Part shown: one piece after another, positions 43,724 to 62,027 of the stretch | Layout of the letters: each line of letters opens with the position of its first letter | Position numbering within the stretch: the stretch's first letter is position 1 | Made by a program: the position numbers and the translations under genes | NCBI RefSeq assembly: GCF_007745175.1 | Contig: NZ_CP036271.1 | Location: 3,174,314-3,238,313 of the forward strand | Source: Caulifigura coniformis | GTDB lineage: Bacteria > Planctomycetota > Planctomycetia > Planctomycetales > Planctomycetaceae | DNA: 64,000 bases | Reading direction: 5' to 3' | The notes under the pieces: generated by a model | The model's database searches: none | What the model saw: the letters and a program-made list of their open reading frames with translations, nothing else | What the model was told of the DNA's origin: nothing

Positions 43724-43796
43724 GGACAGATAGCTCAGCAGGTAGAGCACAGGACTGAAAATCCTGGTGTCGCCGGTTCGATTCCGGCTCTGTCCA
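43724..43796 (+). tRNA. tRNA-Phe (GAA)
   Basis: 73 bases fold as a standard cloverleaf: acceptor GGACAGA with TCTGTCC and discriminator A, D-arm GCTC/GAGC, anticodon stem CAGGA/TCCTG with loop CTGAAAA giving anticodon GAA at 43757-43759, and T-arm GCCGG/CCGGC with loop TTCGATT. The CCA end is not encoded. It is the likely integration target of the element that follows. Confidence 0.97.
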
Positions 43797-43860
43797 CTCA
43801 GCGGATCCACGCCAGGGGGAACCTCTCCCCCGGGTCCGCTGTTCTGGATGGAGCGGACCC

Positions 43861-45347: not shown

Positions 45348-46427
45348 ATGCTTCAGGCGACTGTCAGGCTGCATGATGCGGACGCGGAGTGGGCGGCATG
45401 GAACGCACGTCAGATCTCGACCTATCAGCCGCGGCACGTGCCGCCGGAGCGCCGCGAGCATTACGCGGCGACGACCTCGCTCAGGCAGTTCTATCTGGAC
45501 TGCAGCGAGGGGCGGTGGGAGCCGGTCGGACGGAAGAAGGGGCGATCCAAGGGGACCGTGGACAAGGAGCGGCAGGCGCTCAATCGTTGGGAGAAGTACA
45601 CCAGGCCGGAGGACTGGCCGAGCAACAAAGCCTGGCCGGGGCCGAATCTGGCGATGATCGAGACGATCTCGGCCGAGTGGTTTTCGGATCTGTACGACAA
45701 GATGCTGGCAGGAGGGCTCTCGAACGGATCGGTCAAATCGACCCGGTCTCATCTGAATGTCCTCATCAATCATGCGACCGCTGTGAAGGCGATCCTCAAA
45801 TCGCCGCAGACGCGCGCGATCGAGAATCGGGACCTCAAGAAACGGATCTACACGCCGGACGAGGTCACGAAGATCTTCACCGTCTTCGAGGCGGTCAATC
45901 ACAAGCTGGCGATTGCGTTCTGGGTCGCCCTGCATGTGGGGCCCCGGGCCGAAGATCTGTTCACCCTGCGAAAGTCGGACGTCATTCAGGACACGCGCGG
46001 CCGAAGGCTGATCGAGTTCGAGGCGAGGAAGACGGCCAAGTTGCAGGCGATTCCGATTTCAGACGAAACCTGGCAGTGGATCCAGCCACTCACGTCGGGG
46101 GACTCGCCGTACCTGTTTCACGACCTGACGTCACCGCAGGCACTCAATCCAGAGAAGAGCTATCGGGCGCGGGCGCGAAACTCGCTTGTGAAGCAGCTCC
46201 TGGCCAGCGTCGGCATCACCGACGTCGATCGACCGTGGCAGATCGCTCGGCGGACCTGCAACGAGCGGTACGAGTCGCACAGACCCGGAGTCGGGGAATT
46301 CATCACCGGCCACGGAAAGCAGGGGGTCAACGCCCGCAGCTACCGCGAGCCCACCGAGGCGGTACACGAGGCGGTCAGGACGTTGCCGCCGTACACACAA
46401 CTGGAGAGACAGCTTCGCCTGTTTTAG
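45348..46427 (+). CDS. int: Tyrosine recombinase/integrase
   Basis: 359 residues, starting after AGAGGA. Residues about 40-160 are the SAM-like core-binding domain; about 165-345 the catalytic domain. Expected active-site residues: Arg200 in HVGPRAEDLF, Lys228 in ARKTAK, Arg301 in QIARRT (the usual first His of the HxxR box appears as Gln298), His322 in GHGKQG, and the nucleophile Tyr332 in NARSYREP. It should integrate and excise the element, probably at tRNA-Phe. Terminator-like hairpins follow immediately. Confidence 0.92.
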   Translation: MLQATVRLHDADAEWAAWNARQISTYQPRHVPPERREHYAATTSLRQFYLDCSEGRWEPVGRKKGRSKGTVDKERQALNRWEKYTRPEDWPSNKAWPGPNLAMIETISAEWFSDLYDKMLAGGLSNGSVKSTRSHLNVLINHATAVKAILKSPQTRAIENRDLKKRIYTPDEVTKIFTVFEAVNHKLAIAFWVALHVGPRAEDLFTLRKSDVIQDTRGRRLIEFEARKTAKLQAIPISDETWQWIQPLTSGDSPYLFHDLTSPQALNPEKSYRARARNSLVKQLLASVGITDVDRPWQIARRTCNERYESHRPGVGEFITGHGKQGVNARSYREPTEAVHEAVRTLPPYTQLERQLRLF

Positions 46428-50372: not shown

Positions 50373-50448
50373 GGAGACGTAGCTCAATCGGTAGAGCGCC
50401 GCGGTGTGCAGACCGCGGAGGTTGGTGGTTCGAGTCCATCCGTCTTCA
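50373..50448 (+). tRNA. Cys-like tRNA (GCA) with atypical anticodon arm
   Basis: 76 bases: acceptor GGAGACG with CGTCTTC (one G-T), D-arm GCTC/GAGC, T-arm GGTGG/CCATC with loop TTCGAGT. The anticodon arm is odd: a 6-bp stem (CCGCGG with CCGCGG) encloses an eight-base loop TGTGCAGA. The best reading is anticodon GCA after T, i.e. Cys, but the extra pair and extra loop base make decoding uncertain. It could be a functional phage tRNA, a suppressor-like variant or a pseudogene. Confidence 0.75.
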
Positions 50449-58264: not shown

Positions 58265-59341
58265 TCAGGTCGGAGTCCGTCTTCGTTGTCTGCAGCGAAG
58301 ATGATCGATAATCGTTTCCCCTTGTAGGCGGACGAACTCCGGAGGGAATGCGTTACCGATTAACTGAGCCACCGCGAACTTTCCACGGTCCAGCGGGAAG
58401 GCGTAATCTGATGGGAAGGACTGAAGAAGCGCGGCCTCCCTCAGGGTGATCGTCCGGTTCTCAGTTGGATGAAGGAATCGGCCTTTTGATGGATTGACGC
58501 AGCCACCGGTGATTGTCGGGGCAGGGTCGGCCCACGCCATGCGGCCGTAGACATCCTTGAAGCCATCGCATCGACGATGACACGCGAGCTGCCGTCTTGC
58601 GGGCAATGCGGCCCGGCTGCCCCCGTCGCGTGGAATGGAATTGATCAGTGCTGCAACCTTCTTCGATCGGGTCTCGGGAAAGTCGTGTAATGGGTCTCCC
58701 GAGATTCCAGCAGGGAGAAGGTCCGCAATGGCATCGCGAACGCACCGCCGTAGTGAAAGCGGAGCAGCATGGCTTACTTCCCCAATACGGCTTCCAATGT
58801 AGACCATCCTCAGCCGACGTTGGGGCACACCATAATCTCGAGCGTTGAGAATCGTTGGCTGGCCGACGTATCCAACTTCACGTAGTTTGCGGAGCACCTT
58901 CCGGAATCGTGGTTCCTCCGCGAGGCGAGGAACGTTCTCAATCATCACGATTTTCGGGTTGACGCCCTCAACGATTCGAAGCAGCTCAAAGACCAAGTCT
59001 TTATTTTCCGGGTTGCGGATGTATCTCCCACCATTGAGCCGGGCTAAAGCAGAGTGTGCTTGGCACGGGGGACAGCCGACTACGAGATCGATCTGTCCTG
59101 ATTTGCGCTTTAGGCGGGCCAGCAGTTGAGGAACATCAACCTGGCAGACGTCATCCCAAAGCGGGATCGCCGGGTGGTTCAACTCGTAGGCCTTCCTGGC
59201 CAGAGGATCGATCTCAACGCCAGCGACGACATCAAAGCCCGCTTGCACTAGGCCAAGAGTTGTACCTCCGCAGCCTGAGAACAGGTCGATCGCCGTCGGT
59301 GCAACCTCGTCGAATGGGGCATCATGCGAACCTGTCCTCAT
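58265..59341 (-). CDS. C5-cytosine DNA methyltransferase
   Basis: 358 residues from the ATG at 59341, chosen because it overlaps the upstream stop by four bases (ATGA); the frame is open further. All main m5C motifs are seen: I DLFSGCGGTTLGLVQAGF (20-37), IV VVGCPPCQAHS with catalytic Cys93, VI IENVPRL, VIII VPQRRLRMV, the TRD between, IX SKGRFLHPTENRTITLREAA and X QLIGNAFPPEF. It methylates a cytosine in a short DNA site, unknown here. Downstream partner of the GHKL-nuclease gene. Confidence 0.96.
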   Translation of the reverse strand: MRTGSHDAPFDEVAPTAIDLFSGCGGTTLGLVQAGFDVVAGVEIDPLARKAYELNHPAIPLWDDVCQVDVPQLLARLKRKSGQIDLVVGCPPCQAHSALARLNGGRYIRNPENKDLVFELLRIVEGVNPKIVMIENVPRLAEEPRFRKVLRKLREVGYVGQPTILNARDYGVPQRRLRMVYIGSRIGEVSHAAPLSLRRCVRDAIADLLPAGISGDPLHDFPETRSKKVAALINSIPRDGGSRAALPARRQLACHRRCDGFKDVYGRMAWADPAPTITGGCVNPSKGRFLHPTENRTITLREAALLQSFPSDYAFPLDRGKFAVAQLIGNAFPPEFVRLQGETIIDHLRCRQRRRTPT

Positions 59342-61323
59342 GGATCTTGATTCCCCAATCCTTCTTTGCGTTGTTCTCGTGATCGGTGAGCAGTGCCCAT
59401 CTCCAAAAGTCGGCGTGTCGCGACGACTTCCTTCTGCTTTTGACTGAAAGCGGGGTCGCTGACGTCGCCATTCAGCACCGCGGCGTAGTGGGCGTAAAAC
59501 TTTCTTGCTCTGTGAAACATCTCGCTCCAAGGAAGCAGCTGTAAATCTGGATCCTTCTCAAGGCCGGGCAACTTGGTTTTGGGGACAGTGAGCGTCCCGC
59601 CGTAAACCAGCACTCGGCGACAGCGTGGGCGAGTTGCCATCAATGCCACCTGATAGCGCTCAAGACGTTGGATCTCATCGAATGTGACAGCGTGGCCGGG
59701 CCGCTTGAGTTCGACGATGACGATGTCCTCGGCATCTTTCTCAAAAGCTAGGAAGTCGACCCGCTTATCAGCCATATCCTGCGGAACATCCTGTTGCCCC
59801 CACTCCCTGAGCTGTCTGCCGATGGACTTTTCTTCAACGAAAACTTGCCATTCCGGGTTAAAGAGCCATGGGTAACCGGCCAGCAAGTCATGCAAATTGT
59901 CGTGTGTGATTTTCGATGCAGTCTCAGGAGCATTGTCCAGAATCATTGCTTCGAGCTTATTCACGACGCTCAGTCGCCCTTTGACAATCTCGAGAATCGC
60001 GCGGCTTTCAAGGACCTTCCAGTCATGAAGTCGCCCCAGAGTTTCCGCCAGTTTCGCGGGATCTGTACTGACCTCTTCGATGTGGTCGATCACATCGTGA
60101 AACATCCTGAATTCGTAGGCGCGAATCAGCGACTCGGCCAACTCGCGTGTTCGCGGCTCGTTCTTTGCCGACTGCTGCCCAAGCACCTTGAGGAACCCGC
60201 GAATCTGCTTCTTTGTGGGCGTGTCGAGCCTGTCCAACCTTGCGCCAAACTCCGAATCGGCAATCACCCAGTTCTCGAGCTCCTCGCCCATCATCTCGCC
60301 GCAGTCACGCAGAATCTTTCGGGTCAGTTTCTCGCCCCAAGCCTTAAGCTCTTTGAGCTCCTCTTTCTCCCAGTCGACCTCCTGTCGATCGGTGGAGATG
60401 AGGTCAGACTCAGAATCGGTGCCCGTGTCGATGTAGTCTGCAACGATCTCGCCGCTGACGTATCGCGTCGAGTGTTGCGACGAAGCAGTCGATTCGACGT
60501 TGAAGAAGAACGGCGGCGCCTGGGCTGTCCGCTCGTTGGCATAGACCACGAATCCTTGCAGCTCCTTCGACCGCAAAGGAGATTTCGCGAAGCCGTACTT
60601 GTACCTCACCGTTTTGCCCTCAGCGATCTCCGCCTCCAAGAATCCGTCATCGCCTTCTGTCTGGAAAAGCCAGTCGATGGTCGGCTCAGGAAGTGGCGAC
60701 CCGTTCAAGTAAATCTTCATCTCGCGCCGCGTTATCCGCGAGAATCGCCTCGTGAGGGTCTCCGCCAGCGCGTCGAGATCCAGTGGCGACCCATGTCGTA
60801 GCTGTGACAGCTCCACCTCCGTTCCGTGAGGCGCGCTATTGGCTGGCTTATCGACTTGCGACCAAGGAAAAACGATGTCGTCAGCCTTGCCCGCAGCGAC
60901 ACGGAATTGATCAAGCTGCATCGAGAAACGCAGCCCTTTCGGCTGTGCCGCGGTCCAAGTTGTGACAGTGACCTTGGTGGCGAGACCGAAACCAGCAAGC
61001 TTGCCAATTCCTTTGCGGCCCATGACTTTCCGATTGTGGACCATGCCGTGGTCCGTTTCTCGACGGTTGCGGCCGACAACCATGTAGTGATCTTGGACGG
61101 TGTTCTCTGACATCCCGTCGCCGCTGTCCTTCACCGAGATAACGCTGGCGCCAGGGTCATACTCGGCGGCCGTGGGAACGGTCAGCCAGCACTCCTTCGC
61201 TCCTGCATCCCAGCAGTTCGCCACCAGCTCCGCGATGGAGGGCGCGCGGTGTTTGTACATCTGCGTGCCGAGATGTTCGATCGTGCGACCTAGGACGGTC
61301 ATTCGGAAACTGCCATCCGACAT
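59338..61323 (-). CDS. GHKL ATPase fused to PD-(D/E)xK-like nuclease
   Basis: 661 residues from the ATG at 61323; the frame is open upstream to 61392. The N-terminus is a GHKL ATPase of the Hsp90/MutL/MORC kind: Glu32 and Asn36 in SIAELVANCWDAG, VKDSGDGMSE (64-73), MGRKGIGKLAGFG (101-113), HGTEVEL. The middle (about 250-480) is helical. The C-terminus contains RVDFLAFEKDAEDIVIVELK, whose Asp523, Glu538 and Lys540 fit the PD-(D/E)xK nuclease motif. Predicted restriction component gated by ATP-driven clamping; the methyltransferase follows. Confidence 0.87.
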   Translation of the reverse strand: MSDGSFRMTVLGRTIEHLGTQMYKHRAPSIAELVANCWDAGAKECWLTVPTAAEYDPGASVISVKDSGDGMSENTVQDHYMVVGRNRRETDHGMVHNRKVMGRKGIGKLAGFGLATKVTVTTWTAAQPKGLRFSMQLDQFRVAAGKADDIVFPWSQVDKPANSAPHGTEVELSQLRHGSPLDLDALAETLTRRFSRITRREMKIYLNGSPLPEPTIDWLFQTEGDDGFLEAEIAEGKTVRYKYGFAKSPLRSKELQGFVVYANERTAQAPPFFFNVESTASSQHSTRYVSGEIVADYIDTGTDSESDLISTDRQEVDWEKEELKELKAWGEKLTRKILRDCGEMMGEELENWVIADSEFGARLDRLDTPTKKQIRGFLKVLGQQSAKNEPRTRELAESLIRAYEFRMFHDVIDHIEEVSTDPAKLAETLGRLHDWKVLESRAILEIVKGRLSVVNKLEAMILDNAPETASKITHDNLHDLLAGYPWLFNPEWQVFVEEKSIGRQLREWGQQDVPQDMADKRVDFLAFEKDAEDIVIVELKRPGHAVTFDEIQRLERYQVALMATRPRCRRVLVYGGTLTVPKTKLPGLEKDPDLQLLPWSEMFHRARKFYAHYAAVLNGDVSDPAFSQKQKEVVATRRLLEMGTAHRSREQRKEGLGNQDP

Positions 61324-61736
61324 ACTTGATTCTCCGACGCGATCGAAGTGCAACACCCGGTGATCGGCAGGTTTGCGGAGCCCCCAAGACACCCACTGTC
61401 GCTGACTTTCCCCGCAGAGGAAAGCGCGAGCCCGATACCGCCTAAAGTAGGAGATGGTCGTACATCCCGCAAAACCACTGCGAAAAGAAAAGGAGGACAG
61501 ATCTGACGCGCTAAAGAAAGTCTGTGACTTTCCGCGATGCCTTCGGCAGGCACCGGGGGCGTTCGGGGAGCCGGGAAGGACCCGCCGGCCCTAGGTAGGG
61601 CTGGCCTGTATAGAACCGTTCAATAGCCGCTTCGCTATATGGGGGCTGGGCTTGGTGGGCTGTGCCAATCGCCCGTATTGCGCGCGAAATATTGGCAAGT
61701 CGACCTTGCCCCGCGCTATGGAAAAGCCCCGTGCCT
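61324..61736. other. Intergenic region upstream of the defence cassette
   Basis: About 410 bp of lower GC than most of the window. It should hold the minus-strand promoter of the GHKL gene and the plus-strand promoter of the PadR-like gene. Short frames on both strands lack protein-like features. A purine tract (61490-61500) is visible; no clear repeats. Confidence 0.4.
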
Positions 61737-62027
61737 GTGACCCTGCCCCAGATCAGCCCTGTCCAGTTCATCGTCCTCAAGCAGCTGCAGCCCAAGGAGC
61801 GGACGGGCAAGCAGATCCGCGAGGTGCTCGACAAATGGCGAAAGCCCACCACGCTGGTGAGCTTCTACCTGGCGATGGCCAGGCTGGAGGAAATGGAGCT
61901 GGTCTCAAGCCGCCTGCAGGCGATCCGCGTGGCGAACGTCGCCTGCAGGGAGCGAGCGTACAAGCTGACGGCCGCGGGGAGATCGGCCGTTCGTAATGCG
62001 ATCGCTTTCTACGCGCTCAAGCGGTGA
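61737..62027 (+). CDS. Small winged-helix regulator, PadR-like
   Basis: 96 residues from the GTG at 61737; another GTG is six bases upstream and the frame opens earlier. PQISPVQFIVLKQLQPKERT, GKQIREVLDKWRKPTTLVSF and LTAAGRSAVRNAIAFYAL resemble PadR-type winged helices (helix, HTH, wing, then RAYKLTAAGR). Candidate regulator of the adjacent divergent cassette. Its end overlaps the convergent right-edge gene by 11 bp. Confidence 0.7.
   Translation: MTLPQISPVQFIVLKQLQPKERTGKQIREVLDKWRKPTTLVSFYLAMARLEEMELVSSRLQAIRVANVACRERAYKLTAAGRSAVRNAIAFYALKR

What the first reader, a model, noticed from the sequence alone, without database searches (positions are those of the whole stretch)
58265..61323. 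GHKL ATPase-nuclease plus C5 methyltransferase: a candidate MORC-type restriction-modification system
Two genes overlapping by four bases encode a GHKL ATPase whose C-terminus has a D-x14-E-x-K nuclease motif (Asp523, Glu538, Lys540) and a complete C5-cytosine methyltransferase. GHKL proteins in restriction-modification contexts have been described as relatives of eukaryotic MORC ATPases, but this exact two-gene pair with a fused nuclease has no well-known experimental model that I can name. It sits opposite to all neighbouring element genes and looks lower in GC, as expected of a cargo defence island.
Basis: partly seen in the sequence, partly recalled or inferred. Interest (0 to 1): 0.85.

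Follow-up and report, generated by a model that had tools for sequence, protein, structure and literature searches.

The report
Prophage-borne GHKL-nuclease restriction-modification pair
A virus integrated in this bacterium's chromosome carries a two-gene DNA-protection and DNA-cutting system whose cutter is joined to an ATP-driven clamp; it is a divergent member of an already named restriction-enzyme family (BbrUII/HgiDII), so it is real but not a new kind of system.

Summary
On the minus strand, 61323-59338 encodes a 661-aa GHKL ATPase whose C-terminus carries E467, D523, E538 and K540. It overlaps by four bases a complete C5-cytosine methyltransferase (59341-58265, 358 aa). The GHKL protein matches NCBIfam NF050001, "BbrUII/HgiDII family restriction enzyme" (5.4e-66; 223 bits, below the 550-bit equivalog cut-off). 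The same architecture was described as paraMORC3 in 2008, and an E. coli phage gene deposited as "ParaMORC3" scores 751 bits against the same model. All six close homologues (45-61% identity), from several phyla, sit beside a C5 methyltransferase, on either side. The C-terminal domain is related to the Shedu/NucS PD-(D/E)xK nucleases. The window system belongs to a separate, strongly supported clade whose methyltransferases have their own target-recognition signature, so its site is probably not GTCGAC. It is prophage cargo: the pair lies inside a 46-kb element flanked by a 48-bp direct repeat of the tRNA-Phe 3' end. Verdict: a new member of a known kind. Open points: the unknown site and the role of the ATPase in cleavage.

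The parts
59338..61323 (-). GHKL ATPase fused to a C-terminal PD-(D/E)xK nuclease (661 aa); putative restriction subunit, BbrUII/HgiDII (paraMORC3) family
   Evidence: Pfam HATPase_c_3 3.5e-17; NF050001 5.4e-66, stretches 1-203 and 295-576 of 659; conserved E467, D523, E538, K540
60942..61284 (-). GHKL ATP-binding domain (about residues 14-127; motifs E32/N36, D66-x-G-x-GM, GRKGIGK)
   Evidence: model resembles Hsp90/TRAP1 and MORC3/MORC4/MORC2 ATPase modules
59341..59958 (-). C-terminal nuclease region (residues 456-661), E467-D523-E538-x-K540
   Evidence: SduA_C in 9 of 12 members, best 1.8e-6; PDB profile hits NucS 1.5e-4 and Shedu 5.1e-4; fold match EndoMS prob 1.00, E 0.01
58265..59341 (-). 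C5-cytosine DNA methyltransferase (358 aa), overlaps the GHKL gene by 4 bases (ATGA)
   Evidence: PF00145 3.3e-53; TIGR00675 3.2e-41; solved relatives include M.HaeIII and DNMT1
43724..43797 (+). tRNA-Phe (GAA), the integration target of the carrying prophage
43751..43798 (+). attL: 48-bp tRNA 3' end, repeated perfectly at genome C1:3264247-3264294 (attR, beyond the window)
45348..46427 (+). phage-type integrase of the carrying element
   Evidence: phrog_1 2.4e-15

Best explanation
A phage-encoded two-gene restriction-modification system of the BbrUII/HgiDII (paraMORC3) kind. The methyltransferase puts 5-methylcytosine on one short site throughout the lysogen. The other protein dimerises through its GHKL ATPase and S5-like domains and uses ATP binding and hydrolysis to close on, and be licensed by, unmethylated DNA. 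Its C-terminal Shedu/NucS-like PD-(D/E)xK domains then cut that DNA, so the prophage protects its host against other phages. Shown here: the genes, motifs, conserved pairing, family membership by profile, nuclease-family kinship and prophage location. Inferred: dimer clamping, ATP gating of cleavage, site-specific cutting and anti-phage effect. The recognition site is unknown and probably not GTCGAC.
For: The GHKL protein hits NF050001 (BbrUII/HgiDII family restriction enzyme) at 5.4e-66, matching both the ATPase region and the distal region; PADLOC calls it REase_II at 7.9e-35. All six close homologues (45-61% identity) lie beside a C5 methyltransferase of 44-58% identity, downstream in four of seven loci including the window and upstream in three, so the pairing survives rearrangement. 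Distant homologues keep the pairing too: the E. coli phage, Pantoea, Halobaculum, Campylobacter, Rhizobium, Streptococcus, Burkholderia, Pseudomonas, Acinetobacter, R. daejeonense and Listeria. Active-site residues are conserved. The C-terminal domain is kin to SduA_C, NucS and Shedu. A single-gene GHKL-Shedu protein, VcSduA, needs both ATPase Glu27 and nuclease Lys557 for phage defence (PMC12137116). The carrying prophage has attL/attR, integrase, portal, capsid and terminase genes.
Against: No biochemistry was possible. The score of 223 bits is below the 550-bit equivalog cut-off, so shared specificity and exact function are not implied. Structural matches of the nuclease domain are weak (best E 0.01). 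GTCGAC is not avoided in the host (757 seen, 767 expected in 800 kb) or in the window, which is uninformative for a recently acquired system. A minority of distant homologues lack an adjacent methyltransferase (L049, L051), so the GHKL-nuclease can work otherwise.
Confidence: 0.85

Rival explanations
1. A Shedu type I-D-like defence nuclease (VcSduA-like) that senses DNA ends or phage replication rather than a short site, with the methyltransferase only loosely associated or acting as a modification marker.
For: The nuclease domain is closest by profile to SduA_C, NucS and Shedu; VcSduA works as a single gene without a methyltransferase (PMC12137116); some distant homologues lack a methyltransferase neighbour (L049, L051).
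Against: In the window's own clade every member has the methyltransferase, in swapped orders, and the named family is of restriction enzymes.
Confidence: 0.1
2. The pair is inactive or maintained mainly as a prophage stability module (post-segregational killing) or as phage self-protection against host restriction.
For: It is prophage cargo; restriction-modification systems are known to stabilise elements (general knowledge); the methyltransferase could protect phage DNA.
Against: All catalytic motifs of both proteins are intact and both frames are open. Selfish maintenance is compatible with, not an alternative to, active restriction-modification.
Confidence: 0.05

Closest known systems
BbrUII/HgiDII family restriction-modification (NCBIfam NF050001; M.HgiDII = GTCGAC)
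   Same: GHKL-containing restriction protein of about 660 aa next to a C5 methyltransferase; profile match at both ends of the protein
   Different: 223 bits against a 550-bit equivalog cut-off; separate clade (100/100); different methyltransferase target-recognition signature
paraMORC3 (Iyer, Abhiman and Aravind 2008, PMC2292703)
   Same: GHKL, then S5-like, then C-terminal RE-fold domain with E-D-ExK; association with restriction-modification genes
   Different: Defined in silico; no helicase gene beside this pair. Phage PhiR44_1's gene named ParaMORC3 scores 751 bits against NF050001, so the two labels overlap.
VcSduA, GHKL-Shedu type I-D (PMC12137116)
   Same: N-terminal GHKL plus C-terminal Shedu-type PD-(D/E)xK nuclease; ATPase and nuclease residues both essential there
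   Different: Reported as a stand-alone gene, no methyltransferase; its sequence was not compared here
MORC ATPases of eukaryotes (MORC2/3/4)
   Same: ATPase module fold
   Different: No nuclease; only remote kinship, no Morc6_S5 match above cut-off

Membership tests
BbrUII/HgiDII restriction enzyme (NF050001) | Significant profile match over the whole protein | tested here: met
   5.4e-66; stretches 1-203 and 295-576 of 659
BbrUII/HgiDII restriction enzyme (NF050001) | Score above the curated equivalog cut-off (550 bits) | tested here: not met
   223.5 bits; homologues L034, L036, L039 and L047 reach 651-801. Hence same superfamily, not the same equivalog.
BbrUII/HgiDII restriction enzyme (NF050001) | Adjacent C5-cytosine methyltransferase | tested here: met
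   4-base overlap; six of six close homologues paired
BbrUII/HgiDII restriction enzyme (NF050001) | Recognition and cutting of GTCGAC | tested here: inconclusive
   Target-recognition region differs from that of equivalog members; no site avoidance
paraMORC3 | GHKL + S5-like + C-terminal RE-fold domain with E-D-ExK | tested here: met
   E467, D523, E538, K540 conserved; domain order in the model
Shedu (DUF4263 / SduA_C) | SduA_C domain above gathering score | tested here: not met
   Window protein 14-17 bits against 27; the best relative in the alignment reaches E 1.8e-6
MORC family proper | Family-specific GhXhhpXXRhl motif in S5 / Morc6_S5 match | tested here: not met
   Morc6_S5 15.4 bits against 26.2; the motif itself was not checked
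Type II restriction-modification | Sequence-specific cleavage blocked by cognate methylation | not testable with these tools
   Needs biochemistry or a methylome

The most novel reading that the evidence does not exclude
A subfamily in which a GHKL ATPase clamp gates a Shedu/NucS-type nuclease to make an ATP-controlled Type II-like restriction enzyme with a new 5mC recognition site, mechanistically between MutL/MORC clamps and classical restriction enzymes.
Probability: 0.35. Interest if true: 0.5.

Novelty: new member of a known kind. Interest (0 to 1): 0.3.

Why it matters
It shows that three literature labels overlap: the in-silico paraMORC3 class, the classical restriction enzymes HgiDII/BbrUII, and GHKL-Shedu nucleases. 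This makes the question of why a restriction enzyme carries a MutL/Hsp90-type ATPase directly testable. It also supplies a distinct clade with a different predicted site, and an example in which the system travels as prophage cargo.

Tried and rejected
Site prediction by palindrome avoidance: GTCGAC is not depleted in 800 kb of host or in the window; the strongest depletions (GCGC, CTAG, AAGCTT) are genome-wide and cannot be tied to this pair. PDB sequence search with the single GHKL protein gave only chance-level HtpG hits; profiles were needed. A full-length fold search returned only the Hsp90/MORC ATPase part among the matches listed, so the nuclease region was modelled separately; its matches include RE-fold proteins (EndoMS, Shedu, Cap4, BbvCI, Rpb5) but are weak. 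A viral-contig search with the family alignment was not possible (no conserved stretch). The primary papers on R.BbrUII and on Shedu classification were not held.

Full report
The two genes are real. The minus-strand ORF starting at ATG 61323 and ending at 59338 encodes 661 residues, and the methyltransferase starts at 59341 inside its last codons (ATGA) and ends at 58265. The longest ORF of the first gene starts upstream at GTG 61392; ATG 61323 is the more likely start because homologues align from there. The cassette is 57.1% GC against 63.3% for the host; only 3 of 646 equal-length host stretches are as low.

The first protein has a GHKL ATPase domain (Pfam HATPase_c_3 3.5e-17) with the catalytic glutamate E32 and the N36, D66, G102-K108 and G167 motifs conserved across homologues. 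A model made with 12 homologues (mean pLDDT 79) matches Hsp90/TRAP1 and MORC2/3/4 ATPase modules. The C-terminal 200 residues contain E467, D523, E538 and K540, the E-D-ExK set of PD-(D/E)xK nucleases. D523 is invariant in an 18-member alignment and E538 is invariant or at least 90% conserved; K540 varies in some distant members, for example ELM in L017. By profile this region is related to Shedu SduA_C (9 of 12 members, best 1.8e-6) and to solved NucS and Shedu structures (1.5e-4 and 5.1e-4). Its separate model gives weak matches that include RE-fold proteins (EndoMS prob 1.00 but E 0.01; Shedu, Cap4, BbvCI).

The family is already named. NCBIfam NF050001, BbrUII/HgiDII family restriction enzyme, is hit at 5.4e-66 in two stretches, but at 223 bits, below the 550-bit equivalog cut-off. 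M.HgiDII has been experimentally characterised as a 5mC methyltransferase of GTCGAC and M.BbrUII as a 5mC methyltransferase (PMC5867850). Iyer and colleagues described the architecture as paraMORC3 in 2008 (PMC2292703). An E. coli phage, PhiR44_1, carries a gene deposited as ParaMORC3 next to a Dcm gene, and that protein scores 751 bits against NF050001. The paraMORC3 label and the BbrUII/HgiDII label therefore overlap. A single-gene relative by architecture, VcSduA, needs both its ATPase glutamate and its nuclease lysine for phage defence (PMC12137116); its sequence was not compared here.

Pairing with the methyltransferase is conserved. Six close homologues at 45-61% identity (Nitrospirae, Spartobacteria, Synergistaceae and Prosthecobacter genomes, and two genomes of the host's own family) each have an adjacent C5 methyltransferase, downstream in some and upstream in others. 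More distant homologues on plasmids and a phage mostly keep it too, with L049 and L051 as exceptions. The close type is patchy, 3 of 170 genomes of the host's family, as expected of mobile cargo.

The window system forms its own clade with five of these close homologues (100/100 support; the sixth is a fragment and was left out), apart from the NF050001 equivalogs. The methyltransferases of this clade share a target-recognition signature (RDGGSR..LP..CH..CDGFKDVYGRM..NPSKGRFLHP) that differs from the signature beside equivalog members (PGGTW.DWP..VYGRM..GFGNGRFGHP). The site is therefore predicted to differ from GTCGAC, but it is not identified; palindrome avoidance gave no answer.

The carrier is a prophage. 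A 48-bp perfect copy of the 3' end of tRNA-Phe (window 43751-43798) lies at genome C1:3264247-3264294, bounding a 46.2-kb element. An integrase follows the left end, a ParB-like protein and a HerA-like ATPase precede the pair on the plus strand, and tape measure, capsid/protease, portal and terminase genes follow on the minus strand beyond the window. Homologues in PhiR44_1, Pantoea and Campylobacter also sit among phage genes.

Conclusion: a real, intact, phage-carried restriction-modification pair of a known kind, in a distinct subfamily with an unknown site. The role of the ATPase in cleavage is the interesting untested question. Confidence in restriction-modification is 0.85; ATP gating is inference.

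Noticed in passing
window 43751 to genome C1:3264294 (46.2 kb): Complete-looking prophage in tRNA-Phe with 48-bp att repeats, integrase, ParB-like and HerA-like genes, tape measure, capsid/protease, portal and terminase.
   Followed up: partly
genome C1:3264294-3278441 (beyond the window): A third, partial copy of the tRNA-Phe 3' end (93% over 27 bases) lies 14 kb further on, with a DUF3987 helicase gene between; possibly a second, tandem element or satellite.
   Followed up: no
window 61662-62027 (+): Small gene with a weak PadR-like HTH match (0.0017), divergent from the restriction-modification pair; could be a regulator.
   Followed up: no
window 50373-50448 (+): ARAGORN reports a tRNA with an odd four-base anticodon (tgca) inside the prophage.
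   Followed up: no
host genome G000: GCGC and CTAG are depleted genome-wide (GCGC 5480 seen, 7055 expected in 800 kb).
   Followed up: no
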